DNA of 64,000 nt from Coptis chinensis (Eukaryota > Streptophyta > Magnoliopsida > Ranunculales > Ranunculaceae), in NCBI GenBank assembly GCA_015680905.1, contig CM027378.1, positions 57,933,501 to 57,997,500 on the forward strand, in the 5' to 3' direction. This document shows positions 4,567-29,008 of this stretch, in pieces (position 1 is the stretch's first letter; every line of letters starts with the position of its first letter). A program made the translations under genes and the position numbers. The notes beneath the pieces were generated by a model. The model was given only the letters and a program-made list of their open reading frames with translations. It had not been told where the DNA came from and ran no database searches.

Positions 4567-5110
4567 CACTATAATAGAAAGGCTCAATTGCAACGCCATC
4601 TGGTGTCGCTACAAGTACGAAAAAGCGCTGCCAATGATCAATGGCAATGCCAATGCGGGCGTCACAGAGGCGTTGCAAAAAATTGGGTCACAAAAGCTAA
4701 ATTAAGACGCAACAATTGGCGTCGCAAAAGCTTGAAGGCTATTGCAACGCCTTGTCCCATTGCTATTACTTTATTAGCGTTGCTAAAGTATTTTCCCAAA
4801 CTAAAATGATTTTTAAAATATTTAAACTATTTGCAGCGGTTGGCATTGCAAAAGGTTAGTTTTAGCTACACCTGCTAGCGTTGCAAAAGGGTTACTTTTA
4901 GTTGCACCCTCTGGCGTCCCAAAAGAAGCAAAACATTAGCGGTAAGGTCACAAAAGGTTTAAACCATTAGCTGCACCAAGGGCGTTGCCAAAGGTGTGCT
5001 TTTAGCTGCCCCCTGTTGGTGGTTTTAGCTGCACCAAATGTGTTGGTAATTCTTTAAACACATTTGCAACCCCTAATTCTTTTACAACGAGCTTGGCATT
5101 GTAAATGGGT
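4567..5110. repeat. Left terminal and subterminal repeats of CACTA 1
   Basis: At least a dozen variants of GCGTTGCAAAAG / GGCGTCGCAAAAG occur in both orientations. Such arrays are the binding sites of the TNPA-type protein in En/Spm elements. The small open frame across 4588-4809 is an accident of the repeat. Confidence 0.8.
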
Positions 5111-5724
5111 TTACTCATATATATAATAGGTATTACGCATTATTTTGAATTATTTCAATTTATATAAACCTGCCCAATACAATTTATGATTAAACTAAAA
5201 ATACTGATAAGATGTATTCATTCACAATAAATTATAGCAAAATATATTTCATTAATTAAGATCATCCAAAATCATTATTTGAGCATCCATACAATTAGTC
5301 TCTGCCAATATACTGAATTACAAAATCTTCAAAGCCATAAACTAAATAAGATTAGTTCCTCAAAAAATAAGATTTTGGCCAAATTCCCATAATCTGCCGA
5401 TTCGAACAACATCCACCCAAGTTTTCTTTATCGATATACCGCCAACCAATCGGCCAATCTGGTACAAGCAACAAATTGGAAAAGAAAAGAAACATTAGTA
5501 AGTATACTTATCCAAATTAAAAGAAGATTGAAGCGAAAATGCAAGTAAGCAATGCATGGGAAATATTTTTATGTGGTCAAACTAGGGTCCCATCAACAAC
5601 ATAGAGATGCATCACGCAAAGGAAGTAAGATTATTCCTGGAACAAACCAACTCAATAGGGAAGGGAAGGCTAAAAAAAAAAGTAAAGATCCTCCAGATTG
5701 ATATTTAGTTCCAGATCCCAAGTT
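5111..5724. other. AT-rich stretch in CACTA 1, nothing recognised
   Basis: No coding frame, RNA gene or repeat that I can support. Confidence 0.4.
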
Positions 5725-7400: not shown

Positions 7401-8205
7401 GAATGCTCACATGTATCATGTATGGAGAAGTATTCTTTTATTTAGGGAACCAATGACAACACACTCTTAGCTTTTCAAGAAATAACATAAAGTCGGTCAT
7501 TTTGTTCGTGGGCCTCTACACAATTCACTGTGTCTGTGTGCATGAGGAATTCACTAAGCTACTTGCTGGCATTTCATATTAAAAAAAATTATGTAAACAA
7601 AGTCATCCAAACAGAAAATGTACTCTGATGGCTAATCCATATAGTTATATACAAACTTTATTACAACAATGTATCTAGATAGTGGGTGGGCATGCTTAAT
7701 TTGTATCATTTAACTAATATGGGACCACTGGTAATATATTTTGAAAGGGGCTTGAATTTGGTGACATGCATTGACCTCGCTATATATACAAATCTCCCCG
7801 ACACAAGTACATATGATCTCCACATTGCAATTGAGAGATTAGAAATTCAAGCCTCTACCACATAGTACTTAAGATTGATAAGCTAAAAAAATTCTATAAA
7901 TATTCATCAATTTATCCTCAGAGCCATTTTTTATTCACACCTTTACCACATACCACATAGTACCCTCGTAGTTTTTCACACCTCTACCACATACCACTCA
8001 AACAAATGAGCATGTAATTTGGCCCCTTATCCTACTGGTAAGTTATTTCTGGTGAGTGGAAGACAAATTACGAGGTAATACAGAAAAAATTTGAGGAAAA
8101 AGGATACACGTATAGTTCTCGCAGACTAGTATAAATGCAAACACAAAACATCTCAGAAGGAGTTACTCGATCAGGCATGCAACCAATCAATTTAATACAA
8201 ACAGC
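7401..8205. other. Spacer between the tandem array and the TNPA-like gene
   Basis: No gene is recognised. It contains short AT-rich runs and a TATATATA stretch near 7780, but no convincing promoter context. Confidence 0.4.
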
Positions 8206-9838
8206 TCATATGTACCATGAAGAACTAGCATTGACTTGCAACATCCAAGCCTCAAACCTAGCTTGATGGACGGCCATCTCCTCTATTTGACTTCTTTGAG
8301 ATATCATTTCAGCAGTGAGCTCCTCGTTACGCTTTTCAGCTTCCTCAGCCCTCCTCCTTTGCACTTCCTCCTCTAAATGAAGGGATGCCAACCTTCTAGA
8401 TGACTCTGGCAGGACCCCATGCCCAAGGCCATGGGAGTATCCAAACCTTACACCCAATACTATAATAAAAATTTCATCCTCAGTCTTTGGCTCAGCGCTT
8501 TCTACTTCAGACTCGGCTTTAAGTTGTCGCATTCGGTCCTATAAGTTTAAATTGGGCATAAATATATCGAACTATAAGTACACCATGGTAAAGCTAGGTA
8601 CAAGTAAATTTACTTACATAGTTTTGTTCAGCAATGAGACTAGTCCATCCCTTACTACTGCTAGAGTGGGTTCGACAATAGAATTCGATCTTTCCAATAG
8701 GTTCCTAAGTCTCAGAGTCACGCTGTAAAGATTTGAAAACATATCCCTTTATAATTTACTTCAAATAATATCAAACTGCGAAAAAGCAACCCAATGTATG
8801 TAAATAAAGAAAGTTACAGATTCCTCCAAGTATCCTAGGAATGACTTTGAACCACCACAATGGTTTGTTTTGAGCTTTTGCCGATTATTTGAATTTTGCT
8901 CACTAATTTTCTACAATAAAATGAATACAATATCGAAAGCAATGCCAACAAAAACATTAAATTGAACTCATTCAAAATCCAATAAATTAAGTACTCCCTA
9001 CATCATCCAAATAGAAAGACAGACCAAGCTAAAACATAAAATTACAACGAGTATGTAGTTTTTCTTTAAGAAGTCAACACAACCCTTAAGTATAATTCAA
9101 TACATAGCAGTTTCCTAATTAGCACAATAAAGTATATTACCTTGAAATCTTCTCTTCTAAACCAATCACAACATGCATTCCATTTTTCTTGTGCCAAGCC
9201 ACTATAAGGGTGTGATCGTGCGACTCCATCATTTCTGAAACTCCTATAATGCTTGTGAAGATTACACCTAAATCCTCTTAAACGTGCCCCTAATATTGCG
9301 TCCACAACGTACTTCATATGTGGAAGGTGCATATCCACATCCAATTTTTCCTAACAAGAAATGTAGTTTAAAGTTACATAAAATAATTATGGTATATCAT
9401 ATAGCTAAAACATAAAACTCCATTACTAGAATACGGTCACGTAATGGTTTTCTCACTTCCTCTCCCACTTTACTCCAATCATGGCTAGTAAGAGGACCGT
9501 GTCGACGCGCAACTAGGCCAATCTCCCTGACAAATTGAGCACTCCACTTCCCCATAGGTCTAGTATTACTTGGTTGAATTTCTATCCTCGGTTTCTGACC
9601 AGTAACGTCTTTGTAGTCTATGACTTTCTGATTCTCAGCCTTGCCTCTTTTCTTCTTAAATGGAGTTGTTAAATAAAAAAGTATGAGCTTTCACAACATT
9701 TTATTTGAACTAACCAATGAATTACACAAAATGATTAATTATAATCTTATCGACACTCGAACCATTCACCTCGTTAACCACAGACTGAGGTTGTGAAATA
9801 GATTGTGCCCTCGAGGGTCGATTTAGACCAGGTACCAT
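8206..9838 (-). pseudogene. TNPA-like protein (plant transposase Ptta/En/Spm family), multi-exon
   Basis: Exons read on the minus strand: a possible first exon starting at 9838 (MVPGLNRPSR); about 9651-9425 with GKWSAQFVREIGLVARRHG; about 9350-9141 with MKYVVDAILGARLRGFRC and SGLAQEKWNACCDWF; about 8910-8820 with NRQKLKTNHCGGSKSF, the family signature; about 8723-8622; and 8543-8206, ending in a coiled-coil-like Glu/Arg-rich segment (EEEVQRRRAEEAEKRNEEL). Splice sites such as TTGTTAG at the third exon fit. The exon at 8723-8622 has an in-frame TAG. In En/Spm the partner protein binds the subterminal repeats. It lies downstream of TNP2, as is typical. Confidence 0.8.
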
Positions 9839-10000
9839 AACTATAGAAACAGATATAGCATGAATATGAAAGAAAGAATTCATGAATGATAAAAATCAGG
9901 TTTAATATAGTATTTCTACTCAATGGAAAAACAAGATAAAATCTAAGATAAAGCTCTTCATTCAATAACAAAATGGATAATGAAGTTACTAAAAAAATAT

Positions 10001-13000
10001 TCAATCTACGTTTGTGTCATCATCACTCGATATGACAACTTCTTCCTCTGAACAATAATCTATTAATGTATCATCATCCTCTTCATCAGTTACCTCATCA
10101 ACAATGGTATTGTCATGAAGGCAACTTTCCATAGCAGTCACGACCTCACTGGCATCAACTTCATTTGGGTCCATATCGTCTCTATTTAGTTGTATAGGTG
10201 TTATAGGTTCATTTTGGATTCCGCTACTACTAGCTTCATATGTTTCATCATGTTGGACATTATCCAAATCCATCCCAGTATGCTCCTCCTGTTGATATGC
10301 CTCATCAGTGCCTCCTGCTTCAATCTCTTCTTCCCTCTCTAGAATATCAAACACATTTCTAGGCTTTGTCTTTTGCACAACTTGCCAACTACTACCCAAT
10401 TTGGTATCATCGACGTAAAAAACTTGACATGCTTGTCATCTTTATACCACGTCTTAGAGGTATTAATACTAGTGAAAAAACCATCCGTTTGTATCCCTAT
10501 CCTTCTATTACCAACATCATACCAATCACATCTGAAAAGATAAACTCTCTTCCCGAATAGATAACTGACTTCAAAAACATCGGTCAAAATACCGTAAAAG
10601 TCAGTCTCTTTTCCTTGTGTGTTCTCCTTTTATAGTAACACCACTATTTTGGGTTCGAAGATTTTTCTCTCGATCTTTGGTGTGAAACCTAATCCCATTA
10701 ACAATGCAACCACTATAATGTTTTACACGTGTATCAGGTCCACATGCCAATGAATACAATTCATCGGTAGCTTCAGGAAAGTTCTCATTGTGTAATATTT
10801 GCATCTGTTCATAAAAATGTACACCAAATTAGTAAAGCATAATTAGCATATTATTCCGGTTCATAACAATAACATTAAAATAAACAATACGAACACTTAC
10901 ACGTTTTTCAAACCAACTAGGAAACAACATTTCTTGTCTCTCAGGCAAGTTGCGTGAGCTTTCCATTTGAAGCTCTGTCATGTGTTGGCTACATGCATAT
11001 CAAACACATAAACTTAACAACTTAAAGTGGCTTAAAATGTATAAAACATAATTGATAAGTTAAATGCAGTAGAACTTACTCTAAATAAGTTGATAACTCC
11101 TCTGTATTATTCAACACATAGTAATGAGCCTTGTCTCGATCCTTTGGTTCGAGAATGATATTTGTATAAGCTCCAAATGGTCGAACATTCTGCATGAAAA
11201 CTTCAAATCCTGTCTTTTGATTCTCATTACCACCATCATAATTTCTTTCTTCACGATTGAACCGAGTTTCAATTCCTTGAAGATACATGGAGCAAAATGT
11301 GAGACATTCATTGTCAACATATGCTTCAAACAATTGAACAACCGAGGCGAGCCTTATTTCGAACGTATTGTTTTAGCGTGGGTAGATACCTGTTTACAAA
11401 TCACACATATATGATTAATGTATAATAAATATTTTAACTTTAAAATGCTAATTTCACATTAAATGAATTCCAAGTTGTATGCCTTACCTTTCAATAGGAT
11501 ACATCCACCTATACTCCTCCAAGTATCGCCTCACGCGACAAGTGGACAACCAAATGAACCATTACATCGAAAAATGCAGGAGGAAATATTTGGTCGAGCT
11601 TACAAAGTATAATTGCAATGTCTTTTTCCATCTTCTCAAGTACTTCCAATTTTAGCATCTTGCAACATAACTCTTTGAAGAACATGCCCAACTCAACCAA
11701 TGCAATGGCTACATCCTTTGACAAGAAACCACATATTGCAATCAGGAGAAGTTGTTGCAAGAGCACATGACAGTCATGACTTTTCATTCATGTTATCTTG
11801 CCATCTTTAGCATTTGCACATCGAGAAATGTTAGACGCATAGCCATCAGGAAACTTCACCGACTTCAGCCACTCGCAAAAATATTTTTTCTTTGAAGATG
11901 ACAATGTGTAACATGCCAGGGGTATTACAAACTTATCACCTCTTGGGATTAGATGCAACTCTTTTCTTATACCCAATGCGGCCAAATCTAATCGAGCTTT
12001 TATTGAATCTTTTGTTTTGCTATCTAGGTTTAGCAATGTCCCCACAACATTGTCACAAATGTTCTTCTCAACATGCATAACATCAAGGTTGTGTCGCAGT
12101 TTAACAGTGTCCCAATATGGTAACTGAAAAAATATGCTCTTCTTTGTCCAGTTCAACTCCATCTCGGTACGCTTTCTTTTTTTTTAGGCTTTCCAAATTT
12201 TTAAAGGGGTTCTACATAGTTCACTTGTGATAACAATTCATCCCTAGACAACTCTTTAGGTGGCAACCTGCTCTCCCTATTTCCATCAAATAATTGTTTG
12301 CCATGAGTTCTCCAAGCATGCCTTAACGGTAGAAAATGACGATTTGCCATATAACATAACTTTCGTCCATTCTTCAAATACATGGAAATTGTATCCTTGT
12401 TACAATTAGGGCAAGCTAGTTTTCCCTTGGTACTCCAACTAGATAAATTACCATATGCGGGAAAATCAATTATAGTCCATAACACTACAGCATGCAACTG
12501 AAATGTTTTATTTGCCACTGCATCATAAGTCTCTACCCCATCTTTCCACAACTCTTTAAGTTCATCAATCAAAGGTCGTAAATAAACATTGATATCATTC
12601 CCAGGTGATGAAGGTCCTGGAATGAGTAACGTCATGAAGGTGAACGGTTCTTTCATACACTTCCACGGTGGTAAATTATATGGTATCACCATTACAGGCC
12701 ACATACTGTATTGGCTACTCATATTGCCAAATGGGTTAAATCCATCAGTTGCAAGACCCAAGCGAACATTGCGAGGATCATTGGCAAACCACTCATGTTC
12801 CTTATCAAAATCGCCCCAAGCTTGAGAATCTACTGGGTGCCTGAGTACATTCTCCTCCCGATCATGTTTTTCTTTGTGCCATCTCATATCTGCAGCAGTA
12901 ACCCTCAACATAAACAACCTCTTGAGCCTTGGTTTAAGTGGGCAACACTTTTTGTGCTATTTTTTAGTCTTTCCTTCACAAACTTTATACCTTGGCTCCC

Positions 13001-13832
13001 CACATTTGAGACAATTTTGAAGACTGTCATTTTCTTTCCAAAACAACATGTAATCATTCTTGCATGTATGTATTGAGATATAACCATGTCCCAGGTTACG
13101 CATTAGTGTCTTCGCCTCGTAATGAGACTTTGGCAGTGTCTCACCTTCAGGCAATCCAATTTTAATCAACTGGAGAATCATAGTGAACGATTTGTTACTC
13201 CAGTGATTGATTATCTTTAAGTGAAGCAATTTCACAAGATAATCTAACTTAGAAATCTTACAACCTGGATACAAAGGTTGGCGTGTTTCCCTCAAAAGGT
13301 CATCATATGGATCTATATTTCCTCCATTGTTGTTAAAGCTACCTTCACCTTCTGTGGCATTCAATGCATCATCATCTCCGGATCCCCCATGTTCCACGTG
13401 AGGCTCCAAATTATCAACATGTGTTGAAGCTTGTAAATCTTCAATCATGTCATCTAACCCATCAAAATTTACCATTTGAACACCATTCCCATCATCATCG
13501 TCATCACTTAATTCCTCATATTCTTCTCCATGAAACACCCAACGAGTGTACTTCTTGTCCATGCCTAACATCTCTAGATCATCATTTACCTCATTGATGT
13601 GCTTGTAATTCCTATTTTTGCACTCTTTGCATGGACACCTAGTCCTGCCCGCACTGTCTACATGACCATGAGCAATATCAATAAAATCCAGAATTCCTTT
13701 TTTATATGCTGGCCAAAACCTATTTGGTAATTGTATCCAACTCTTATCTATTTCCGTGTTTCCTACTACAAGAGAATAATTGTACGACCAATTTTGACAT
13801 AACAAACGAAAATAGTACACATGCCATACCAA
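10001..13832 (-). pseudogene. TNP2-type CACTA transposase, multi-exon, broken
   Basis: The N-terminal transposase-associated domain is at about 13760-13500 (DKSWIQLPNRFWPAYKKG, TRCPCKECKN), followed by an acidic linker. The core follows: AADMRWHKEKHDREENVLRHP and LATDGFNPFGNMSS (12900-12700), VVLWTIIDFPAYGNLSSWS and CPNCNKD (12480-12390), and HNLDVMHVEKNICDNVVGTL at about 12100-12030. Then come MKSHDCHVLLQ (11787), ECLTFCSMYLQGIETRFNRE (about 11310), CIVNGIRFHTKDRE (about 10700), KRVYLFRCDWYDVGN (about 10540) and an Asp/Glu-rich C terminus ending at 10001. Damage seen: TAG at 12957-12959, a frameshift near 12190, TGA at about 11788, and frameshifts near 11340, 11500, 10420 and 10600. Family exon order is kept. 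Confidence 0.9.
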
Positions 13833-16050
13833 CTTATCAGATTTGTTTCTGAGAACTTAAACTTTCACTTATACAACAACTAATAAACTTTCAAACCCTT
13901 AAACTTTAAGTGAAAGCCACTTAATGAAGGGTATTTTTGACATTCACTTCAAGAAAAGACAAACTGCAATATAAGACATAACACTTTTAACTTTTCAACT
14001 TTGCCCCTAATCTTCTACATAGTTTAGGTACTTTATCTCTGAGAAAGAGCATAGTTGTTACTTCTTTTTTTTTTCAAATTAAATTGGTTACAAAAAGTTT
14101 ACTTCGATTTATTCTTTTTATCACTATAATTGTCTAATGTAGTTATTGTATGTTAATAAATTTTGGTCTTATTGAATGTCTTTTATTTATTAAATTTGGT
14201 CTATTGAACTGTTCACTAATGCTCAATGGACAAAGATGCTCAAAATGACATTGACATTGAATATTTTTTACATAGTCCTGCTGTTTTACACTCTATAATC
14301 AGTGTGTGATCAGCTAGTGTGCATTTTTCGCAAAAGAAAAATAATAGCAATGCAAAATCATGAGGAGCGAGTCTGTATGAATAAGCAAGACCTATATATT
14401 CTTGTGGTGAGACAAAAACTATACGGTCCAAGCACTAGTTCATTTTTTAACCGAAACAATGAAACTGAAGCAACATACTAATCTAAGTATAAAACCATAT
14501 CTAGGCAAGGTAAAACAAACTCCTCTAAACAAAAGAAACAAACATTCAATCCATGTACGTATATAATATCATAAAGGCTTGTATATAGTGCTCATTAAGC
14601 CTACAAAACAAATAAAAGAAACCAAGTTCTACCAATCCAAATAAGTCTCAAGTGACAAAACATCATGCAACTAATTATAAGTTTTCTCTTAAGTTTAGAA
14701 ACTTAGTTTTGTAATATCGCTAAAGAAAGGCTACCACAAGCCTCCACCAGCCTCGAATGTTCGAAAAGCTTTACTAGAACTTATCTGGTGAGTTATTCCA
14801 AAGACAGGGAATGCCTAGATTGGGTCTTGTTCAGTTAAGATCTCCCATAGAGAAACTACTAATGAAATATATCAGACCTTGCCTCTAGATAATCTACAAC
14901 GACTAAAAAAAACTCGAGACCTTTCTTAAATATAGCTATCAATTGTTCAAAAGTTCAATTCTAAAATATAGCTATCAATTGTTTAAAAGTTCAATTCTAA
15001 AATATAGCTATCAATTGTTCAAAACTACTAAAATTGCATTACAACAAACAAAAGTTCAATTTTAATCTAAAAAATATACAAGCTAGAGAACATGAAAATG
15101 CTACCTGGAATAAGTTTACAGGTTCAACCTATTTTCCTTGTTGCAAGTGTTTAAGTTGAGGACTTGAACCAAGTTTTCAAACACACTCTATTACATTAAG
15201 TTGCAAAGATCGAGGAATCAACAAAATTAGCCAAAATAAAATAAGACATATAAGGTTCTCACTTGGAAACTCAAAACCCAAATTCACACGCACACGTCAT
15301 AAACAAGGCACCACTTACAATCGCTGAAATCGTACAAACCTTAATTGACCTAAAGAAAAAGTGAAGGAAAGATTCATACCATACTTTTCTACTTTCAGCG
15401 GTACTTTTCTATTCGCGCGATATCCATATCCAAAAATTGACTCAATATTTTAAAAGTCGGTCATTTTTTTTTAATATCTTCTTAGCAATAGGGCCATGGT
15501 TGGGAAACTAAGGTCTCCCTTTTGTTTCAATATGCTCCAGCAAAAGAGAACCATATATAAAAGCTAACTCAAGTATGGAATGAGCCACCACTCTTCTTTC
15601 TTGATATCATAACTTTACATGTATAGTCATGAAATTTGTTCTTTAACTGATAATACCAATATTTTTACAATAGTATGGCATGGTTCGTATATTGCATAAC
15701 AAGAATAATAAAAGGCAACGCTATTCCCATAGAAAGATTGATATTGGAAGAGGAGAAAGGGTGTGAGAAATATCTGTTGTGGGAAGTAGGGAAAAGTAAC
15801 AATGGAAGAAGAGAATGCTTATTATTTACTACTTGTGATCAAGAGTTTGAAAATGAGGATGTACTTGATAGGCATCGAGAAATCAACCCATTTCAAATGC
15901 CAAAGATTTGTCATGAGCAGTTTTAAGCGTTGGTGGAATGGCTATTCACGTTATTCGACTTCGGAGGAAACTCAAACTACTAACAACAACTCTTGATTGG
16001 CACGGCATTAATTTTCACCAGATTGTTTGAAACGCGTGACTGTTGTGCGG
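13833..16050. other. CACTA 1 region upstream of TNP2, no gene recognised
   Basis: AT-rich. It has a short tandem repeat at 14927-15023. A plus-strand frame at 15675-15926 (83 codons) matches no family I know and has no supporting context. Confidence 0.4.
14927..15023. repeat. 36-bp tandem repeat, about 2.6 copies
   Basis: TATAGCTATCAATTGTT starts at 14931, 14967 and 15003, with AAAAGTTCAATTCTAAAA between copies. Confidence 0.9.
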
Positions 16051-16790
16051 TCAAGGCTCAAAACTGAGTGTTGTAGTCCACGAACTTTGACTCTGGGGAA
16101 GTTCATTCAGTTATAGAATGCGTTAAGGGCTCTTAAGGAGAGAGAGGGGCAAGGCTGCCTGATTCTAAACAAGTTAAGGCGCCATCTGGGTTGTAGTATT
16201 GAGGGAGGTGGAATAGAAAATTCTGTGAATCAAGGCCTGCTGCGTCCCGTCGATGATTGTCTTATGGATGTCTTGAAAGAGATACCACAAGATGTTTCAT
16301 CAGACAAGTCCTCTTGATTGACTAATTGGTAATCCTGTATGTTATAGCTTCAACCTGAAGTCGACTACCGATAGGTGTTAGTCTATCTCTTTGAAGTTAT
16401 GCAGGTCTTGATTGACCTGCTGTGCCAGTCAAGGCTCAAAACTGAGTATTGTAGTCCACGAACTTTGACTCCGGGGAAGCTCATTCAGTTATGGAATGCG
16501 TTAAGGGCTCTTAAGGAGGAGAGATAGGGGCTAGGCTGCCTGATTCTAAGTAGGTTAAGGCGCCATTTGGGTTGTACTATTGAGGGAGGTGGAATAGAAA
16601 ATTCTGTGAATCAAGGCCTGCTGTGTCCCATCCATGATTGTCTTATGGATGTCTTGAAAGGGATACCACAAGATGTTTCATCAGACGAGTCCTCTTGATT
16701 GACTAATTGGTAATCCTGTATGTTATAGCTTCAACTTGAAGTCGGCTACTGACAAGTGTTAGTCTATCTCTTTGAAGTTATGCATATCTT
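16051..16790. repeat. Two direct copies of a roughly 370-bp unit inside CACTA 1
   Basis: TCAAGGCTCAAAACTGAGTR begins at 16051 and at 16429. The copies match closely through TTGAAGTTATGCA and differ by scattered substitutions and a few short indels. No frame is conserved, so this is a local tandem duplication of non-coding DNA. Confidence 0.9.
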
Positions 16791-18560
16791 TCACTTATGT
16801 TAAGCGCTTGACTGAATAACTTTACCTTAATAGCAAGCTGGTCTATGAATCTAGGTGAACCTAGAGGGCTGAGTTGGAAGGGGCTGGGGAAGAATTACCC
16901 AACGGGGTTTTGAGTTGGACTAATCGATGTTCAAATCTCACTGACAATGAACACCAACCCAATGAAAATCCACCCTCCCCTATACTATGCATTCGGTGGC
17001 GATAGAAAATTCGGCTTTCCGATTTCCTGGCTTTCGAAAGACAGTAGGTTTGGTACAGGACTAGCCAGAGGGGTATAGATGGTATAGAGGAGAAGACCAT
17101 AGGACAGGACCAAAATAAGTTGGGATTTCTATCTGAGACTTGACACAGCGTATGAATCCTTATTCCATAACGAAAGAAAGTGGACTAGATCTTTCGAAGT
17201 GTTGGACTAAATCCGCACTCGCCACCAGCGAATCTTTTCACTAGTTACAACTGTATCTGCAACTTCGGCCCCCACTTCACCATGCTCTCATTCAGAAAAT
17301 ACATATGTCACATTTGTTAACTCTAAATCCTGCGTTTCTGGTCCAAATAATGGTCGTCCTTCAATCGGCCCCTGCCAGTGACATCTAACAGAGCCCCAAC
17401 GTATCTGGAAACTAAACCCCTCTATCTAGTTTGGGATGATGAAGCCTTCTCCATGGAGGAAAATAGAGCATTTGACATGCATGTCAAACAAGAAGAAGCT
17501 TGCTGTTAAAAGTATGGGGTGGGTGAAACTAGCCAGATGATTGTCCCTGGATGCAGCAGATAGAAGGATATTGGTGTAGGCCTATTTTGGGTTCCCACGG
17601 ATATGTAGGTTGTAAATTTTATGGACTGAGTCACTCAGATACAGGGAGCAAAAAGACATATACGAGTAACTATATTTAACTACAAGGTGACATTGTATTT
17701 GAGGAAGGTCACAATATTGTTGTTGTATCTTTATGAATACTATAACTGAACCAAGAGTAAAAATGGACGACTAAAGGTCGTAGCGGAACTTTTACGTAAG
17801 ATTGATATTGGAATAGAATACACGCCAAAATTCCTTCAAATTGAAATATAAAGATTTGTTCTTTATATCACAAATCAAAAACAAAAACAAAATACCCAAA
17901 ATCAAAAGCAAAGCAATATATCTTACCCACTGTAGAGAACCCCAATTCGAGCAGTTTTACCTGGCTCCACAAATCACTGCAAAGAACACCAAAAATTCCA
18001 CTTTAAAGCTAAAACAATCAATCAAGACAAGAAAAAAAAAACAAAAAAAAAAACGATTTCAACTAGGGCAGGGAACAAAAAAACAAAGCTTTTGATTTTG
18101 TTATAGCTTCAATGACTTTTAAATTCTTCTCACCTCAGTAAAGTCAAAAAACAGTGGAGGTTGAGGGTGGAGGAGAGATAAGCTTTGAAGATGTGGAGAG
18201 AAAAATGATGAGTTTTGGAGATGGAGGAAAGAAGTTTCGGTTTAGATGGAGAGAGAGACAACAATCTAGGGTTTTAATATGTTTTTTTTTTGTGGTATTT
18301 CTAATTTTGTTATGACTTAGAGCGGGAACATGAAAACTGGAGCACGAATAATATTTGTAGCCAAAAAGAATATATCCGCCCAAACCAGAGCCCATTGGCA
18401 ACATCGAAATCGTCGCAACAAGCACATACACATAGTCTATCCCGGAATTACCAGTGACGACAAGGGGGTTGCAATAGATATTTAATCTATAGCAGCACCA
18501 CACTTGTTGCCAACAGTAAATATTATCAATTTAATTATTTTTCTTATTTTTCGTAAATTT
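16791..18560. other. CACTA 1, right-hand interior, no gene recognised
   Basis: Less AT-rich at 16850-17600, then A-rich at 17840-18080. A minus-strand frame at 18144-18503 has hydrophobic stretches but no family signature. I cannot support a gene. Confidence 0.4.
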
Positions 18561-18723
18561 AAGCAAACACTTTTGCAACGCTCTAGGTATTTCCCAAAAT
18601 GAAAATTCTATTAAGACAGATGACATTTAGCAACGCCACACGATGTTGTAAAAGATGACTTATTGCAACAAATTTTAGGCGTGGCGAAAGAGTGCGTTGG
18701 AACAGACCCCTTTTGTTGTAGTG
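18561..18723. repeat. Right subterminal repeats and terminus of CACTA 1
   Basis: Motifs TTTTGCAACGC, TAGCAACGCC and GGCGTGGCGAAAG match the left-end array in inverted orientation. The segment ends TTGTTGTAGTG at 18723, followed by TSD TAT. Confidence 0.85.
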
Positions 18724-20678: not shown

Positions 20679-21102
20679 TGATAAAATGTAAAACAATAGT
20701 TTTACCTACTCCTAACTAGTTATGCTATGCATAAGTAAAACTAAAGATATTTACTACTTTATATCAAAGTTATCTACTCTCGTTTATCATGCAATATGTG
20801 GAGTAGAAAATTAGTTCCACTCTTAGTTTATTTAGGCGTAAGTTTTGCTAGTTTAATCTATTCAAACAAAATCAATGAGAGTAATGGATTGTAATTTTAC
20901 TAATATGGTGATTGAACTAATTAAGATGTTTTAACTTATACTATAGCAATCAAATATTAAGATGTGAATATGGAGAACGAATTAGGGGGATTTGATTCCA
21001 CTTTCATTAATTCCTCATATGCTAGTGTAGATTATTGCAATCCTAACCAATAAAGATTAAGTAATTGATCACTGATTATTCATGGCAATCTCTACCAACT
21101 AA
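20679..21102 (-). mobile_element. 5' LTR of element A, U5-side part
   Basis: The reverse complement matches E1's LTR about 39600-40082 and ends ...TTATCA next to the PBS. It is cut at 21103 by CACTA 2. With the other part (28045-29008) the LTR totals about 1,385 bp, close to E1's 1,392 and 1,396. Confidence 0.85.
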
Positions 21103-21119
21103 TACTATACCAAAACAGG

Positions 21120-21580
21120 ACATACCTAATGGTTAGAAACCGTTACTAAAAATCTTTGTAACGGTTTTTTTGCGTCACAGTTTTGGCGTTTCTAATTCGT
21201 TATTAATTTTCGTAACGGTTTAGAACCGTTACATAATTATTTATTGTAACGGTTTTTTCCGTAACTGAAAATATTTGCTAACGGTTTTCTTTGTTAAATT
21301 GTATTACTCTTTAATAACGGTTTTATAAAATTAGTAACATTTTTTTTGTTACTCTTTTCTAACATCAATAACAGTTTTATAAAGTTAGTAACACTTTTTT
21401 GTGTTACTCTTTTCTGACATTAGTAACGGTTTTATAAGTTAACAACACTTTTTTGTATTACTAATTTATAAAATTTGTAACGGTGAATTTTCTTTTGGTA
21501 ACGGTTTTGCTGTTTCGTAAGTGTTACTCATTGCAAAATTTAGTTACGGTTTTCCACCATTACAAAACTATTTTATATGT
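21120..21580. repeat. Left subterminal repeats of CACTA 2
   Basis: At least ten copies or variants of GTAACGGTTTT and AAACCGTTAC in both orientations, comparable to TNPA-binding arrays. The family differs from CACTA 1. Confidence 0.85.
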
Positions 21581-22737
21581 AAAAAAAATAATTTCCCCAA
21601 AAACCACCCTTTTTGAGAGACTACTGATCTAAACCTGCATAAAGATGCCCCTACTTATTGGGTATTCTACAATTGTCCATAACATAAACAAGAAATCTCA
21701 CAAGTACATCCAATCACATAATCTTTTATTAAAATAACATCACCAAAACGTCTTTCATAAATAGGACTTGCCACAAATGAAATACAAATTGTTTTTCAAA
21801 CCAATAGGACTTGTCCTTAAACTCAAACTCTCACGTCATTTGTACAGAACTAGCTCCTTCAGTAGTTGCAAGCATCAGGGGATGACTTTGGGATGGTATT
21901 ATCAGAAAAGTCCCTTTCATTCTATACACCAATAGAAATAAATAAAAATAAGTCACAGAGTAAAAAACAAATATGTATAGATATATACTTATATCCTATT
22001 CTTAAGTAGTAGCTCCTTATACTAAAACTACGAAATTCATAAAAGAGAGTATGGTAGCATACTAGTAGCAATAGAAGCATAGTATAGACATGAAAGTTTA
22101 TGTAACACCCCAAAACCCTATATCCTTGTCAGACACCTTGACGAAAGACATAAAAATTTCAGTAGAATCTCCTTTGTATTTTCAATATTTCATAGACATA
22201 AATCCTGTCATAACCTGGAAATCAAATAATATATTGATTCGTAGAACCAGCTACTTAACCATCTCGACCAATACCAGTTAAGTCAAATAACCAATCCTCG
22301 AATAAAAAAGACACTGTAAATTATATACCAAAATTAAAATGAAAACAACATAAACATCACTTCCACTTATATCAGTGTTATACACCTCTATTAGTTCCAA
22401 CCAGAGATACCACACTTAGAATATATGTACACCATACCTTCACACTACTCACATGTAAAATCCCATCTTCCAAAATAAAACTCATGAATATTCCAACATC
22501 TGCATACAATTATCACATATGAAACGAAAGAAAACCACACAAGAACCTTACCTTTCATTAACTGCTAGGTCTCCTATTGCTGCTATCCATCTACGTTCCA
22601 ACATAAAACGCTAAAGCTAGTTCCTCACTTGGAGGCATTTTAGTTCCTTATTCCCCTAAGAAAATAACTAAAATAACATATACGGGATTATACAAAATAA
22701 CTATATTTAACTTTACTTTTACCTTTAACCGAGTTAG
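21581..22737. other. CACTA 2 interior, nothing recognised
   Basis: AT-rich with short frames only. It could contain introns or further captured sequence that I cannot identify. Confidence 0.4.
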
Positions 22738-22860
22738 TTTCACATCTGCTTTATGTGCCTTAATAGAAACTGAAGGTGTTTTCCCCAAACGGGTATCCCA
22801 TATGGCAAACGTACCATCCACAAAACATGATGCAAAAACATTAGCTTCGGTAGGGCTCCA
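22738..22860 (-). pseudogene. Captured exon of a GRWD1-type WD40 repeat protein
   Basis: The minus strand reads WSPTEANVFASCFVDGTFAI then WDTRLGKTP and KAHKADV. This is the glutamate-rich WD-repeat protein (GRWD1-like, ribosome biogenesis) signature with an IWD repeat end. A splice acceptor (ATGCAG) directly precedes the first Trp codon, where the family has LQW. About 41 residues match; past 22738 the sequence no longer does. It is a fragment of one exon with flanking intron, without the rest of the propeller. Confidence 0.75.
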
Positions 22861-23418
22861 CTGCATGAAGGAATTTAGGCAACTTTTAGAACGGAATAGA
22901 CTTCAAATTGAGGGCTTACCGCATTAAAACACACACATAAAAAAATGAAGAAGTTTTGTTATTCAAATCGAAAAGCGAGAGAATTCATCTACAAAGTGAT
23001 GAACACTCAACACATTGCACAGCGCATTTCCAAGTCGGAACTCCATTTAATCCATCCTTTTCTTTTGTGTTCATCTCATATCACTGCTCAAAGATAATAC
23101 ACAACACAGTTGGTAAAAAACCAGCTGTAAAAAAATTCAAAATTATGACTGTAAGTATCGAGTAAGTAGAAGATGAGATACTTCCAGGTTTTATCCGTTG
23201 GGTATGAGTTTTTTTGTTTAAAAAAAATATTGGTTATTTCTTTCAGGTATCCCAATCCCAACATTACATTATTTCCCCTCCAATTACATTCTTGCAGGTT
23301 CCCACTCAAATGCTACAAAGCACCAATGTATTCATAAAGAAACAATTAGAACAACAAAATGTTAAAATTAAAGTACTCTGCTCAAAGACATTGAATAGTT
23401 TGTGACTTCCATGACTAC
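22861..23418. other. CACTA 2 interior, unassigned
   Basis: Probably intron or captured non-coding DNA 5' of the WD40 exon. Small frames at 22956-23309 lack any signature. The last eight bases, ATGACTAC, are the TSD of the hAT element. Confidence 0.4.
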
Positions 23419-24676
23419 TAGGGTTGTCCACAAATAACCGAAAACCGATAAACAGAACCGAATAGGCTCGAACCGGCCATTTTTTCAGGTTTTTGGTAGA
23501 CCCGATTCGGTTTATGGTTCTGTCAACTAAGAACCGACTAGTAGAATGCAGTTTTCAGTTTTGTACCTCAGTTAACCGATATAACCGAACCGAAATGATG
23601 TATGTAAATAGTTTATTTTTAGATATCTAATTAAATGATGTTTATCAACAACCGTTGGATGATATCTTGTGTTCTCGTCAACACAAGTGTAACCTTATTT
23701 CCTCAAACAAAATAACCCACATACTGACATAGTCACCCTTCACTTCGACTGTGTAGCCACCATTCTCTACTTAGATCAAAACCCAACAACAATAAAGATC
23801 ACCATTCATATATTCCGACATCTCCATCTCCACGTACTAGTGAGGGCTTTAACCACCCACTCTGTATCACATTCTTGTGGTGATGAACAGTTTTGCAGAT
23901 CATTTTTTTCTTACTTTCGTGAATGTTCGAAGATATGATACACTATGGCAGCATGGGCTTGTTTGCCAAAAGCTAGCTTTAACTATGTGAATTTGTGAAG
24001 ATGTGAATTAAAGTGAATAGGGTGATTTACTTTTGTGAATTTGGGGAGATGCAAAAGCTATGGTAGTGCGTTGTGAATTTGTGGAGAAGTGGAGATAGGC
24101 ATATAGGAGTGATTATACTGACTTTTTGTATATTTTGAAGACAGTGTTAAGTTGAATGTTGTAACAGTTATTTTATCAATGGTTCAGTACTTTAAAATGC
24201 CTTGATAACTTTTGTCAGATCTGTGTGGGTAAGATAATGTTATAAATTAAACAAATATTTTTGGTTGTGTTAAGGACTTAATCCGACTACTTGATGCATT
24301 CTTGTAAGAACCTGTGTTTTAATTTTCTAACCAGCCTGCAAGATATATGAGGATGGGAGAAATGCTTCAAACATTTATTGTTGAATATGATATGTACTTA
24401 GCCTAGGCATGCGCCTGGGTTACAGGGCTTGTTTCAAAATTGTTGGAATGGGTGTCTATTAAATGAGTCTATGGTGAAGTGAAAATTATTGTTAGTTGGG
24501 CTTTAAGTCAATGGATTTGGTTTTAAACCGATCCGAATTGATTTTACAATTCGGTTAGAACTCGATTTTCTTCTAGCTGTGGTTCGGTAATGGTTTGAAA
24601 AGTTAGAAACCGACCCTTATGATTCAGTCTATATATTTGGACTAAACCGACCCGAACTGAACCGTGGACAGCCCTA
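23419..24676. mobile_element. Non-autonomous hAT-type element nested in CACTA 2
   Basis: The 1,258-bp element starts TAGGGTTGTCCAC and ends with the inverted copy GTGGACAGCCCTA. It is flanked by an 8-bp TSD, ATGACTAC, at 23411-23418 and 24677-24684, the hallmark of hAT. Subterminal regions hold AACCGA / TCGGTT repeats. No transposase frame. Confidence 0.9.
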
Positions 24677-24744
24677 ATGACTACAATAATCTTGCCTAAC
24701 ATGTCTGATCAAAGGAGAAACAAGACTTCAAGCTAAGATAGGCA

Positions 24745-24975
24745 AGGGTGGAATTCGAACCGAGCAGCTCAGGCTCGGCTCGAGCTCGCTCGTTTAACTA
24801 TATAAATTAAAGCTCGTGTAACAAATGAGCTTGATGAAACTCGGCTCGTTTAAGTTCAGTTCGAGTTCACTCATTTAACTATATGAGCCGAGCTCGAGCT
24901 CAATTTAAAATTTGTGTAATTAATGAACCGAACTTGAGCATGGTAAAGCTCGGCTCGTTTAGCTCGACCCTTAAA
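24745..24975. repeat. Cluster of CTCGGCTCG / GAGCTCGAGCTC motifs
   Basis: Dense short direct and inverted copies of GCTCGGCTCG and GCTCGAGCTCG with AT-rich spacers, ending near AAATATAG. It resembles the body of other small plant hAT/MITE elements, but I could not define termini or a TSD. Confidence 0.5.
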
Positions 24976-25146
24976 TATAGGAACAATATCAGAGCAAAAT
25001 TTAAATTTAAGACCGAACAAAAAATGTAAGACAGAACAAACAACCCTTAATATATTGCTAAAGCTATTCCCAATAACTTACAAGGAAATGGTTTTACTAA
25101 ACTAACATTTACAAAGTATGAAATTAAATCAAGGACAACACTCACC

Positions 25147-25433
25147 TTATTTCACATAGCAGGGCGCTCCTCCACCATGTTGCTACCTCTTCTAGGGCAA
25201 ATAGAACCCCCCCCCCCTACAGGTGAGCGCATACACCTGAAGCTGCTCCACATGTAATAAGATCCCTACGGTCCCTGTTGTTATTGACGTAATGTAACCA
25301 ATGCCATTCCAAGCGGTGTTTGTTTGGTCCACCTTGGCCTAGCAAGGAAGCAATGCAGGAACCGATGTGCACTAGTGGCCCTTCTTTTCCCAGATCTAGA
25401 CCAACAGAGACAGCACAAATTGCTTCTAATTAT
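25147..25433 (-). pseudogene. Captured exon of a CLC-type chloride channel / anion exchanger gene
   Basis: The minus strand reads VGLDLGKEGPLVHIGSC, ASLLGQGG, NNRDRRDLITCGAASGV, then VLFALEEVATWWRSALL. GKEGP and the FALEE helix are canonical parts of the CLC anion pathway. A splice acceptor (TTTGCAG) is at the 5' end and a donor-like AAATAAG|GTGAG at the 3' end, so exon and flanking introns were taken. The GxFxP-type block between GV and VLF is damaged: a deletion leaves an in-frame TAG next to a run of G. Only about 95 codons are present, so no channel can be made. Confidence 0.85.
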
Positions 25434-25733
25434 CTGCAAAGATGAGTAAAAAAAGGTTTTTTGAGATCATATATAAAAATGTACTTGTTTATCAGGTTTG
25501 AGAATGTTTCGGACTCCTGAAACTTGCTTTTACAAAACACAAAGCTGAAGTTATCATAGTGGTGAACTTTTTCCCACTAAAGACATTCCCATCTATAGGA
25601 GATAGAGTGTGTGTGAGTAGGAGATATTACGATTTAAATAAAAAAATATAACATGAAAAGAAATTTTCATTTTAGCAAATAAACAAATTTTATTCTATTA
25701 AAGAAACTTTATGCAAATAAACATGTGACTTAC

Positions 25734-26122
25734 ATTGCCCAATAACATTTGCCAATTTGTTTTTGCTCAATAACCAAGTGACATACACTGACGCATTTTA
25801 TCAGTATCCATTCCACCACCATCATCTGCAAAGGAAACTCATGCCATGATTTCGCCCATAAAGGAAACAAAACAATCGTACCGTTGGTTTACCAGTCATT
25901 TCCAAATAAATTAAAGCAGTTTTTTCTATTTACCAGTAAGAAAAAACAAAGCAAAAGGTATTATAGAAAATATAAATTAAGGATGTGCTTTTCTTTACTC
26001 ATAACAACATCACCTAAGGTTGACTTCAGCTCATGGCAGATTTGAAATCAAAGACTCCTTGCGCTTCAACCTTACTAACTAACGCCCCAAGATATAGATG
26101 AATGTAGCCCTCAAGGCCACAA

Positions 26123-26184
<62 letters not shown>

Positions 26185-26485
26185 ATATATATATTGGTTG
26201 CAATGTTGTACATGCATCTCAGATCTTAGGTCCAAGAAAGCAGATGCCCATCTGAAGTTGCATATTTTAAAGAGTACCTACCTTCAATTAGCAACATTCT
26301 GCTCCCATCCTTCTTATTTTCTAACACATCAACATTTACAAAGGTAGCTCCATAGCAGACCTAGCAAAGAAGTTAGAATCTTTAATGAAGACAGCAGAGA
26401 GTATGAAGGAAATCCAATATACCTTCAAATAGATAAACAGGATAATATACCTCGTCTAAAGAATTGTCAAGAAGCTCCACGAAAG
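25734..26485 (-). pseudogene. Captured three-exon fragment of a MORC-family GHKL ATPase gene
   Basis: Exon a at 26451-26485 encodes FVELLDNSLDE (the N-box of the GHKL ATPase). Exon b at 26282-26360 encodes YGATFVNVDVLE and GSRMLLIE. Exon c at 25734-25825 encodes DDGGGMDTDKMRQCMSLGY (the G1 box). Acceptors (TTTTTCAG, TTGCTAG, TTTGCAG) and donors (GAG|GTATAT, GAAG|GTAGGT, AAT|GTAAGT) keep the exon phases consistent, so introns are retained. Exon c then shows a TCA-to-TGA-type stop and a one-base frameshift. In plants MORC ATPases help silence transposons. Here only the start of the ATPase domain remains. Confidence 0.85.
26125..26182. repeat. (AT)n microsatellite
   Basis: About 58 bases of uninterrupted AT dinucleotides. 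The Ile/Tyr-rich frame across it is spurious. Confidence 0.95.
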
Positions 26486-26898
26486 CTGAAAAATGTATGG
26501 TTCAAATATTAAAAAACTAACCGTTGGGGGTGGGGGAAGAAACCATGGTAGGACCCAAGTACTCAAAACAAAAAAATAACGTAGTCTAACCTCCAAGAGC
26601 CCATTTATGGCTAGTGGGTTGGAGAAGAGTGTTATGTTTTTCTTAAGAAGTGGCTGCTATAGAGAGTTGCTTTCTGGGTCATTTTCTTCTGCATCTTCTC
26701 CTTCCATGTAATGAGCTTTTGTTGAGTCTTACTCTTACCTATAAATCCCATTTTAACATTCTCTTGTTTGCGTTCAATACTAGAACGAATTTCGCATCGA
26801 AGAAATTATTCATAAAGAGCAAATGAGCATTCACATTTCTTTTCGGACTGTAAGAAATAATACTTATAAGAAATGTACCTAAGGCATGAAAAACAAAC

Positions 26899-27783
26899 CT
26901 GATTAACAGTCTCTCCAAAAGCTACAAATGCGAATTCATATTGCTTATGCTCAATGATTCCATCAATACTCCAGTTGGAAATAACTTGAACAAGAGATGT
27001 CACTTGTAAAAGAACTTGAATAGGCTTTAGGCCATCCTGGGACAACGAAACACATTTACGTATAGCAGACTAGAAATACCAATTTCATGATCCAGGATAT
27101 CAAATAAATTAAAATCTATAGATTGGAAGAGATGAGAAAGGAGATGTTTGGAGTCTTCAGCAATCATATCAGCCACAACTATCTCAAAATAGTCAAGTAA
27201 ACAAACAATAAGACTAGTACAAGATTCCCAACGTTCAATGGCAAAATAGTCTAAGGCACCACCATCCTCCCTCCTTTATTCGGGCTTGGACAGCCATGTA
27301 AAAGCAATAAGAACAATATTTACCTTTATCCGAAAGTGTCGCCAAAAAAACCAAGTGACATCTACCGAATTTTACATATAGAAGAGCAAAATCAAACCAC
27401 AAAAATTGAATTTTTTAAGGAATAATACAAGTAATAAAAATCGCACCTTTGGTTATAACTGGAGCAACTAACACCCAAGTTAATTTTAGTTGTGATATCA
27501 CCTAGTAGTAGTGTGAAAAATCGAAAAAGAGATATGAGATGATGAAAAATAGAAAACCATAGAAGAAGAAGGTGAAGGAAGGTCATTACCTAATAGCGGC
27601 GACCGGTGCTGACTCCCCAAAGTAGTGGAACGGTACTGCTTGAGAGAGGGAACGATGAAAAATATGAGAGAGAGGAGATGATATAAAAGAGAGGCGATGA
27701 AAAGAGCAGACGATATAAAGCTGTTTTTTAGTAATCTTAAACATGGAGAGAAGAGCACGATCATTTTGGTGTTTCCCTCTCAC
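26899..27783 (-). pseudogene. Further captured gene fragments, gene not identified
   Basis: Three exon-like minus-strand pieces. 27783-27588 starts MRGKHQND and ends APVAAIR before a donor-like GTAATG. About 27290-27060 reads FAIERWESCTSLIVCLLDYF and further. 26899-27036 lies between a CCCAG acceptor and a CAG|GTTTGT donor and reads DGLKPIQVLLQVTSLVQV and YEFAFVAFGETVNQ. They lie upstream of and in the same orientation as the MORC piece. They could be its 5' exons or another gene; I do not recognise them. Confidence 0.45.
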
Positions 27784-27889
27784 CGAAAATTCTTATTTAG
27801 TAATCTTAAATTCTAATTTAGCTATTATTTTAATATTATATTTAACTTTAACGATTTCTTTAGACTTTCTGGTCGAAGCAAACACTTTA

Positions 27890-28044
27890 AAAACGTAACA
27901 AATTAATTCTCAAATTGGGCAAAATTAACGTAACAATTTATATACAATTTTAACACTTATAAAATGTTAGGAACCAAGTTACACTTTAAAACCATTACTA
28001 AGCAAAAATCTTGAGCGTTACTAATATCCTATTTTGGTATAGTG
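27890..28044. repeat. Right subterminal region and terminus of CACTA 2
   Basis: AAAACGTAAC, AAAACCATTAC and related motifs are in inverted orientation to the left array. The segment ends TATTTTGGTATAGTG, followed by TSD TAA. Confidence 0.8.
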
Positions 28045-29008
28045 TAATAATTAGCATGTGAGGAAGTTCAACCCATTCTCATGGCGAATCAACTAACCTA
28101 CTAGAGTGAAACTCTTAAAAAACAATAATCCTAACTAACACATCAAGTCGTCATCAAGCTTCATCAAACCCATCTAATGGAGATTTAGCTAGAAGTCATT
28201 AGACTATCATTAATAGATAAATAAGAAGAAGACATAATGAAGAACAATAACTTGGATTTTATTAATCTAATGGAATAGAATTTAAGAATTAAAAGCTATA
28301 TTAAAGACTAAGTATTGAATAATCAACTAACTTAAAACTAATGAAAGAGTTATATGAATTAAATCCTAGGTTATGGGGAGGGAAAAATTATTCTAAAAAC
28401 TAAAACTAAGTATCTAATTAAGTATATTTTGAGTTATACCTTAGTCCTCTTTATATAAGAGAGGGCTAGGTTTACAATTTCGTGCATGGGCTTTGGAGCT
28501 ATGTTTTGGGCCTTTAAATCAAGCCCAAAACCTAATTACTTAAGTCCAAAAAGGGTTTTTCTACTAGAATTTACTTCAACATCCTTTCCGTCTACTTTTT
28601 CTCTTCTGATTGGGTTAAGACCTAGACCATTAGAAAGCTCTTTCCGAGGTGGTCGTTTTGACATATAATAGGCTCAATTCTGAGGTCTGAGTTCAAAGAT
28701 ATAGCCTATGGAAGTTCTGTTGACTTTTCTGCTCTATTTCTACCCGCGTTGAGTTTGACTTTTCATCTTTGACCGAGCTTTAAAAAGGGTTTTTCTCCTT
28801 GAATCTTGGCCTTTAGTCATAGAACTTCTTAGCAACCAACCTTTGCTCCTTTATCTCTCAAAAGTGACATATTTCTTCACATATTGATCTCCAATACCTG
28901 AAATACACAAAAGCACGTAAACAATACTAACTCTTATTTATTATACACATAATTGGTCTAAATGTAATATTATTAAGGGGTTAAAACTACAATTTTGGGC
29001 TCTTATCA
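28045..29008 (-). mobile_element. 5' LTR of element A, U3-side part
   Basis: The reverse complement starts TGATAAGAGCCCAAAATTGT at 29008 and aligns with E1's LTR 38691-39600. It carries the MSKR small ORF (28536-28664). Confidence 0.85.
28536..28664 (-). CDS. Small open frame inside the LTR (MSKR peptide), element A copy
   Basis: 42 codons beginning MSKRPPRKELSNGLGLNP. Equivalent frames start in E1's LTRs (38920, 49840), in LTR G (minus, from 51453) and in D's LTR (52787) with the same MSKR start. Whether it is translated is unknown; conservation of the DNA alone could explain it. Confidence 0.3.
   Translation of the reverse strand: MSKRPPRKELSNGLGLNPIRREKVDGKDVEVNSSRKTLFGLK

What the first reader, a model, noticed from the sequence alone, without database searches (positions are those of the whole stretch)
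21103..28044. Pack-CACTA carrying intron-containing pieces of at least three host genes
CACTA termini with TSD TAA enclose fragments of a MORC ATPase (three exons), a CLC channel exon and a GRWD-type WD40 exon. All are on one strand with splice signals kept, and no transposase is present. Capture was therefore at DNA level and from several loci, possibly giving a chimeric transcript.
Basis: partly seen in the sequence, partly recalled or inferred. Interest (0 to 1): 0.75.

Follow-up and report, generated by a model that had tools for sequence, protein, structure and literature searches.

The report
Mosaic jumping gene carrying host-gene scraps
A non-autonomous plant CACTA transposon has been patched together from two transposon families and pieces of at least four host genes or loci, an unusually readable example of a known way in which plants shuffle gene fragments.

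Summary
The element is real: 21103-28044, terminal repeats TACTATACCAAAACAGGA / CACTATACCAAAATAGGA, TAA duplication; the joined flanks match an uninterrupted repeat at 40 of 40 scored places. Parent loci lie in the same genome. MORC: a 1.04-kb contiguous piece (exons 3-5, introns, parts of exons 2 and 6) of a C2 gene, found in no other copy. CLC: from a C6 gene, but second-hand, inside the interior of a different CACTA family ("B") that carries it at 12 other loci held. GRWD1: from a C3 gene, an old passenger of the element's own family ("A"; 27 of 29 other loci fetched). A further fragment (22963-23185) comes from C6:7.84 Mb. The two ends fit different A subfamilies. MORC replaced the middle of the CLC piece, with 4-bp and 9-bp microhomologies. 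Two hAT-like elements are nested inside. CLC and MORC frames are broken, so a chimeric protein is unlikely. Known in kind; unusually well traced.

The parts
21100..21102 (.). TAA target-site duplication, left
   Evidence: empty site at 40 of 40 scored places
21103..21120 (+). 5' terminal inverted repeat (TACTATACCAAAACAGGA)
21103..22738 (+). 5' part of CACTA family A, closest to subfamily A1, with GTAACGGTTT subterminal repeats
   Evidence: over 21103-22966, 92% to A5, 90% to A6, 85% to A3;
22739..22966 (-). GRWD1 fragment (C3:100.37 Mb gene, L029 1501-1728); coding about 22860-22739, acceptor kept, donor lost
22963..23185 (+). Fragment of the locus at C6:7.8376 Mb (L075 3084-3295); 9 A-family loci held carry an overlapping piece of that locus; about 0.6 kb missing at 22963-22966 relative to L019
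23192..25154 (+). Interior of a second CACTA family (B): 23192-23418, 24677-24742, 24974-25154; interrupted by two nested elements
23419..24676 (.). Nested hAT-type element, TSD ATGACTAC (23411-23418 / 24677-24684); empty site in L072
24743..24973 (.). Second nested element, hAT-like, imperfect TSD; empty site in L072
25155..25581 (-). CLC chloride-channel fragment (C6:48.897 Mb gene, L048), carried by B; exon about 25433-25155, acceptor kept, donor lost, two frameshifts
25578..26615 (-). MORC ATPase gene fragment (C2:21.28 Mb gene, L010 1415-2458): end of exon 2, exons 3 (about 26485-26451), 4 (26360-26282), 5 (25825-25734), start of exon 6, introns kept; stop at 25769-25767
25578..25581 (.). 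B/CLC-MORC junction, 4-bp microhomology TAAA
26607..26615 (.). MORC-CLC junction, 9-bp microhomology ATGGCTAGT (shared with CLC gene L048; B copy L072 has one mismatch)
26607..26730 (-). CLC first-exon fragment, the far side of the same CLC piece
26754..26937 (.). Stretch shared at 95% with B copy L046 (C1:12.9 Mb); origin not identified
26936..28044 (+). 3' part of family A; 27372-28044 closest to subfamily A2 (89% to A3, 92% to C9:62.05 Mb; 71-78% over shorter stretches to A5/A6)
28027..28044 (-). 3' terminal inverted repeat (CACTATACCAAAATAGGA on the minus strand)
28045..28047 (.). TAA target-site duplication, right

Best explanation
This is a non-autonomous composite Pack-CACTA. SHOWN: the outer 5' part is closest to one subfamily (A1) and the outer 3' part to another (A2) of the same CACTA family, with inherited GRWD1 and C6:7.84-Mb passengers on the 5' side; between them sits the interior of a second CACTA family, B, which carries a CLC gene segment elsewhere too; the middle of that CLC segment has been replaced by 1.04 kb of contiguous MORC genomic DNA with short shared sequences at both junctions; the two ends were inserted together, with a 3-bp duplication, into a high-copy repeat; two hAT-like elements interrupt the B part. 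INFERRED: the A1 5', B and A2 3' parts were joined by nesting or neighbouring insertion followed by loss of inner ends; the MORC piece came in by template switching during repair of a break or gap inside B/CLC; the composite was mobilised by the tnp2 transposase of an autonomous relative. It probably makes no functional protein.
For: Parents on three chromosomes: L010 MORC, L048 CLC, L029 GRWD1, L075. B sequence lies beside the CLC exon at 12 other loci (L043-L047, L049-L053, L055, L056), with the same B-CLC breakpoint in L072. Of 12 B-type loci lined up at their left end, 11 start with CACTA/CGCTA at the chosen place and one two bases on; 9 of the 12 have different flanks, L062, L063 and L068 share one. 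The CLC middle lost here is present in L043, L044, L046, L047, L050 and L072, and L072 holds a readable CLC exon there. Microhomologies of 4 and 9 bp; at least 4 bp in 2.0% and at least 9 bp in 0.0055% of 200,000 random MORC/CLC gene junctions. Ends: 5' part 92% and 90% to A5 and A6, 85% to A3; 3' part 89% to A3, 71-78% to A5/A6. Of the 39 best other 5' matches only one has one of the 39 best other 3' matches within 40 kb downstream on the same strand (C9); that element has TSD CTC at both ends and is A2-like at both (5' end 90% to A3, 86-87% to A5/A6). A/B nesting: B-type sequence (71-83%) lies on both sides of the A element at C5:57.83 Mb. Empty site 40 of 40. tnp2 (PF02992 E 3.5e-34 and 1.4e-22) lies between the 3'-end match and the GRWD match of a family-A relative on C1.
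Against: The diagnostic interior is single-copy: MORC only here besides its gene and a paralogous exon (3 of 3 candidates); the A-B junction region only here besides the L075 locus (2 of 2). So nothing shows that B and MORC were inside before the element landed here. No intermediate (A+B without MORC, or B with MORC) was found. The subfamily contrast rests on four elements read at both ends and on capped lists; the short stretch 27215-27289 is 91% to A6 and 87% to C9, so not all of the 3' part speaks for A2. 23186-23191 and 26731-26753 are unassigned. B's right end was not seen, and no autonomous A or B element was read end to end. The microhomology control uses random junctions of the two genes, not of B.
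Confidence: 0.62

Rival explanations
1. In-situ decay: an A element landed here, and later B insertion, deletions and break repair with MORC filler DNA piled up in a dead copy. The mosaic never moved as a unit.
For: Single-copy diagnostic parts; two nested hAT-like elements show that the copy collects insertions; filler-type repair explains the MORC patch equally well.
Against: The two ends fit two subfamilies and were inserted together, so an A1-A2 joining preceded this insertion. The MORC gene lies 36.7 Mb away on the same contig, so the patch was not local; this does not exclude the rival.
Confidence: 0.28
2. Serial direct capture: one CACTA element took MORC, CLC and GRWD fragments straight from their genes.
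For: All three parent genes exist and the fragments keep intron sequence.
Against: The CLC piece is flanked by B-family DNA at the B-family breakpoint; the GRWD piece is shared by 27 of the 29 other loci fetched that have family-A sequence beside it.
Confidence: 0.07
3. A young chimeric gene under selection, using MORC and CLC exons.
For: MORC exons 3-5 keep splice sites and sense orientation; the window's own GRWD piece has no stop or frameshift.
Against: Stop and frameshift in MORC exon 5, two frameshifts in the CLC exon. Across copies pN/pS is 2.2 for the GRWD exon (27 loci; 4 with stops, 9 with frameshifts) and 0.80 for the CLC exon (13 loci; 5 with stops, 5 with frameshifts); counts uncorrected, copies not independent.
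Confidence: 0.03
4. Assembly artefact joining unrelated pieces.
For: Repeat-rich region; reads could not be examined.
Against: Matching TSD and empty sites; junctions with microhomology, and K2P of 0.027-0.101 from the parent loci.
Confidence: 0.02

Closest known systems
Tgm-Express1 (soybean CACTA element; PMC1947982, abstract and passages seen)
   Same: CACTA ends, 5.7 kb, exonic and intronic fragments of five unrelated host genes; chimeric transcripts shown there.
   Different: Here parents, junctions and a second-hand route through another CACTA family are traced; no transcripts tested; frames broken.
Pack-TYPE elements formed by fusion of neighbouring insertions (Gisby and Catoni 2022, PMC8903248, outline and section 9 seen; Catoni et al. 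2019 not held, known only through it and PMC13317346)
   Same: Outer ends from two related elements with foreign DNA between; stepwise additions.
   Different: Here the inside includes the interior of a second CACTA family that had itself captured a gene, and a later patch replaced part of it.
Gap-filling / template-switch Pack-TIRs of animals (PMC8277862, passages seen)
   Same: Single-copy, foreign gene piece inside the element, microhomology at breakpoints, breakpoints internal.
   Different: Plant CACTA; the replaced stretch is itself captured gene DNA and is longer (738 bp in L072) than the small gaps reported there.
Tpn1 family of Japanese morning glory (Kawasaki and Nitasaka 2004; seen only as a reference-list entry, otherwise recalled)
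   Same: En/Spm-related elements capturing host genes.
   Different: Not compared here by sequence.

Membership tests
CACTA (En/Spm) superfamily | TIR beginning CACTA | tested here: met
   3' end CACTATACC; 5' end TACTATACC, one letter off; A-family copies A3 and C9:62.08 Mb have CACTATACC at the 5' end
CACTA (En/Spm) superfamily | 3-bp target-site duplication | tested here: met
   TAA/TAA; empty site at 40 of 40 scored places; the C9 relative has CTC/CTC
CACTA (En/Spm) superfamily | Short subterminal repeats | tested here: met
   GTAACGGTTT-type repeats within 21148-21578
CACTA (En/Spm) superfamily | tnp2-type transposase in relatives | tested here: inconclusive
   PF02992 in L078, between the 3'-end and GRWD matches of an A-family relative; that element was not read end to end
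Pack-CACTA | Host gene fragments between intact ends | tested here: met
   Three parent genes and one further locus identified
Pack-CACTA | No transposase of its own | tested here: met
   0 of 10 ORFs tested hit a transposase in Pfam
Pack-CACTA | Mobile as a unit | tested here: inconclusive
   Ends inserted together, but the diagnostic interior is single-copy
Chimeric gene / exon-shuffling product | Spliced transcript joining the fragments | not testable with these tools
   No RNA data
Chimeric gene / exon-shuffling product | Open frame under purifying selection | tested here: not met
   Stop and frameshifts in this copy; pN/pS 2.2 and 0.80 across copies

The most novel reading that the evidence does not exclude
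Gene-fragment relay: captured exons pass from one CACTA family to an unrelated one when the elements nest in each other, and are then overwritten piecemeal by template switching, so that much apparent multi-gene capture by Pack-CACTAs is second-hand exchange between transposons. This element would be a traced example that afterwards moved as one unit.
Probability: 0.4. Interest if true: 0.5.

Novelty: new member of a known kind. Interest (0 to 1): 0.37.

Why it matters
Two routes by which Pack-type elements acquire gene pieces are proposed in the papers seen (fusion of neighbouring elements, PMC8903248; gap filling with template switching, PMC8277862). This single element carries traces that fit both: ends from two subfamilies, and a replacement patch with microhomology from a known parent gene. 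It also warns that counting gene captures per element overstates direct capture, because fragments can be inherited (GRWD1) or taken over with another transposon (CLC). The parent loci and the A and B families in the same assembly would let the two routes be separated genome-wide.

Tried and rejected
Rejected: an unknown further gene at 26936-27066 ("IQVLLQVTSLVQ..."): no Pfam or PDB match for the exon-like piece, and only TCA17 hits at E 0.15 for the neighbouring frame. Its protein-level matches end at query residue 33-38, about where the B-derived part begins, and its DNA matches are repeated; I treat it as family-A sequence fused to B sequence, not proven. Rejected: the tnp2 CACTA at 4567-18723 as the element's own family, because its subterminal repeats (GCAACGCC) differ. 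Rejected: C9:39.157 Mb (L074) as GRWD parent; it shows family-A-like stretches and an aconitase-type exon. Checked because it could have spoken against two subfamilies: the C9:62.05-62.08 Mb pair, which proved A2-like at both ends. Led nowhere: Rfam and tRNA scans; PDB search with the kinesin-like fragment.

Limits: the MORC name rests on HATPase_c_3 hits and on recalled gene layout of plant MORC proteins; the GRWD1 and KCBP names are recalled. Copy numbers are lower bounds, because only the best 40 candidates are scored. In the pN/pS count L029 (reference), L030 and L034 (second loci of elements already counted) were left out. The 9-bp microhomology is counted against the CLC gene; B copy L072 has one mismatch in it. 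The place of the L075 fragment relative to nearby genes (a GH79-type domain lies some 5 kb off) was not resolved. The tnp2 on C1 lies about 8 kb from the left end of that B copy, whose right end was not seen.
Full report
What was checked. The element at 21103-28044 has 18-bp terminal inverted repeats differing at two positions and TAA on both sides. The window lies in a 936-Mb genome in 116 contigs at C2:57,933,501-57,997,500. The first 1001 bases have 41 listed rows (40 of 478 candidates scored) at 76-100%, and 36 of 41, self included, begin at base 4 or earlier. The last 755 bases have 43 listed rows (40 of 327 candidates scored), and 38 of 43, self included, end at base 754-755. The two flanks joined with one TAA match, as one piece, a high-copy repeat at 40 of 40 scored places at 91-94%. 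The boundaries and TSD are therefore firm.

Parent of the MORC piece. 26210-26540 has three matches of three candidates: itself, C2:21,280,668-21,280,997 at 95%, and a paralogous exon on C5 at 80%. The C2 locus (L010) has, in order, an acidic N-terminal exon, the SHKWALG exon, AFAELLDNSLDE, VCYGATFVNVDVL..., DDGGGMDPDKMRQCMSLGYSAKSKL... and GNGFKTSTMRLG..., a layout that I recall from plant MORC ATPases; a hand-joined product hits HATPase_c_3 at 3.4e-17. The element matches it over 25578-26615: end of exon 2, introns, exons 3-5 and the start of exon 6, at K2P 0.059. Capture was at DNA level. Exon 5 carries a TGA and a frameshift.

The CLC piece is second-hand. 25100-25480 has 31 matches of 31 candidates, 17 of them short or partial. 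L048 (C6:48.897 Mb) is a CLC gene with longer open exons (PF00654 E 3.3e-40 and 1.5e-23). Twelve other loci (L043-L047, L049-L053, L055, L056) have, beside the CLC exon, the non-CLC sequence 24974-25154 or part of it that the element also has; most of them also have 23192-23418 and 24677-24742. Twelve loci of that family were lined up at their left end: 11 start with CACTA or CGCTA at the chosen place and the twelfth (L050) two bases on; nine have different flanks and three (L062, L063, L068) share one. This is CACTA family B (CACTACAAAAGAAGTCACTTTACCCGACTGACGG type), with a subterminal sequence unlike that of the element. On C1, tnp2 (PF02992 E 7.6e-37) lies about 8 kb from such a left end, but the right end was not seen. 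The B-to-CLC breakpoint of the window is that of L072, and the match of the CLC gene stops there. A further CLC piece, from the first exon, lies at 26607-26730 on the far side of MORC.

The replacement. In L072, the stretch between the positions equivalent to 25581 and 26607 is 738 bp with a readable upstream CLC exon; in the window it is MORC. At the left junction TAAA is shared by CLC/B and MORC; at the right, ATGGCTAGT is shared by MORC and the CLC gene. Random junctions between the two genes give at least 4 bp in 2.0% and at least 9 bp in 0.0055% of 200,000 trials. Microhomology of this kind is described for gap filling with template switching in animal Pack-TIRs (PMC8277862, passages seen), where the median length is 2 bp.

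The old passengers. The GRWD1 gene is L029 (C3:100.37 Mb; consecutive WD40-type exons). Its fragment was matched at 40 of 40 scored candidates (141 in the first look); of the 29 other loci fetched for it (L013-L041), 27 have further family-A sequence beside it, L013 and L034 being two pieces of one element; the exceptions are the gene L029 itself and L041. Next to it, 22963-23185 matches C6:7.8376 Mb (L075); a query over 23000-23210 found only itself and that locus (2 of 2 candidates). Nine A-family loci held here carry an overlapping L075 piece directly after the GRWD piece. Relative to L019 the window lacks about 0.6 kb at 22963-22966.

Two ends, two subfamilies. Over 21103-22966 the element is 92% and 90% identical to elements at C5:57.84 (A5) and C6:25.44 Mb (A6) but 85% to one at C3:100.99 Mb (A3). 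Over 27372-28044 it is 89% to A3, but 71-78% to A5 and A6 over shorter stretches; one 75-bp stretch, 27215-27289, is 91% to A6. Of the 39 best other 5' matches and the 39 best other 3' matches, only one pair lies within 40 kb on one strand, on C9. That element has TSD CTC at both ends and is closer to A3 than to A5/A6 at both (5': 90% against 86-87%; 3': 91% against 71-74%); its 5' end is 87% to the window's first 1.1 kb. So the element joins a left end of one A subfamily to a right end of another, within the limits of capped lists and four elements read at both ends. This fits the fusion-of-neighbours model (PMC8903248 section 9). At C5:57.83 Mb, B-type sequence (71-83%) lies on both sides of an A element, so the families do insert into or beside each other.

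Later events. A 1258-bp hAT-type element (23419-24676, TSD ATGACTAC) and a 231-bp hAT-like element (24743-24973) interrupt B; L072 has both empty sites.

Function. MORC and CLC frames are broken in this copy; its GRWD piece is open but truncated. Across copies, neither the GRWD exon (27 loci; pN/pS 2.2; 4 with stops, 9 with frameshifts) nor the CLC exon (13 loci, L054 included; 0.80; 5 with stops, 5 with frameshifts) shows purifying selection (uncorrected, copies not independent). Only MORC exons 3-5 keep both splice sites. A chimeric RNA is possible, as shown for Tgm-Express1 (PMC1947982, abstract and passages); a useful protein is unlikely.

Order of events (inferred). GRWD1 and L075 pieces entered family A long ago; CLC entered B; A1 5', B and A2 3' were joined; MORC replaced the CLC middle; hAT-like elements inserted into the B part at an unknown time. 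Divergence from the parents is 0.059 for MORC, 0.027-0.059 for CLC, 0.07 for GRWD and 0.10 for L075; the CLC value is not higher than the MORC value, so divergence alone does not order these two events. The order rests on the structure (MORC inside CLC). Whether B and MORC were in place before the element landed here cannot be told from one copy.

Novelty. Multi-gene CACTA elements, fusion of elements and gap-filling capture are all in print (PMC1947982, PMC8903248, PMC8277862; review PMC13317346, passages; also gene fragments in CACTAs of Chenopodium, PMC8978399, and grapevine, PMC2528002, passages). In the listings of six searches of the open library and the passages read I saw no description of a gene fragment handed from one CACTA family to another; subscription papers are mostly not held, so this is weak evidence.

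Noticed in passing
window 4567-18723: A second CACTA element (TSD TAT, ends CACTATAATAGAAAGG / CACTACAACAAAAGGG, GCAACGCC-type subterminal repeats) with tnp2 (PF02992 E 6.8e-100) and PF13963; a different family from the finding.
   Followed up: partly
L041 and L074: GRWD-bearing loci that also carry an aconitase/LeuC-type exon (PF00330 E 3.1e-7 for the L041 piece; L074 by eye), so further genes were probably captured. L074 has family-A sequence; for L041 none was seen beyond the GRWD piece.
   Followed up: partly
L079 / C1:12.90 Mb: Near a B-family left end with tnp2 further on, exon-like pieces resemble a kinesin-like calmodulin-binding protein (name recalled; no Pfam or PDB hit).
   Followed up: partly
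L007/L034/L077, C5:57.832-57.842 Mb: An A element with B-type CACTA sequence on both sides, and two copies of the GRWD piece about 0.8 kb apart in that element.
   Followed up: partly
L080/L081, C9:62.05-62.08 Mb: A-family ends about 26 kb apart with matching CTC duplications; possibly a very long or nested-into A2 element; the middle was not read.
   Followed up: partly
window 26119-26190: TA-dinucleotide microsatellite within MORC intron 4 of the element; the alignment to the parent gene is interrupted there.
   Followed up: no
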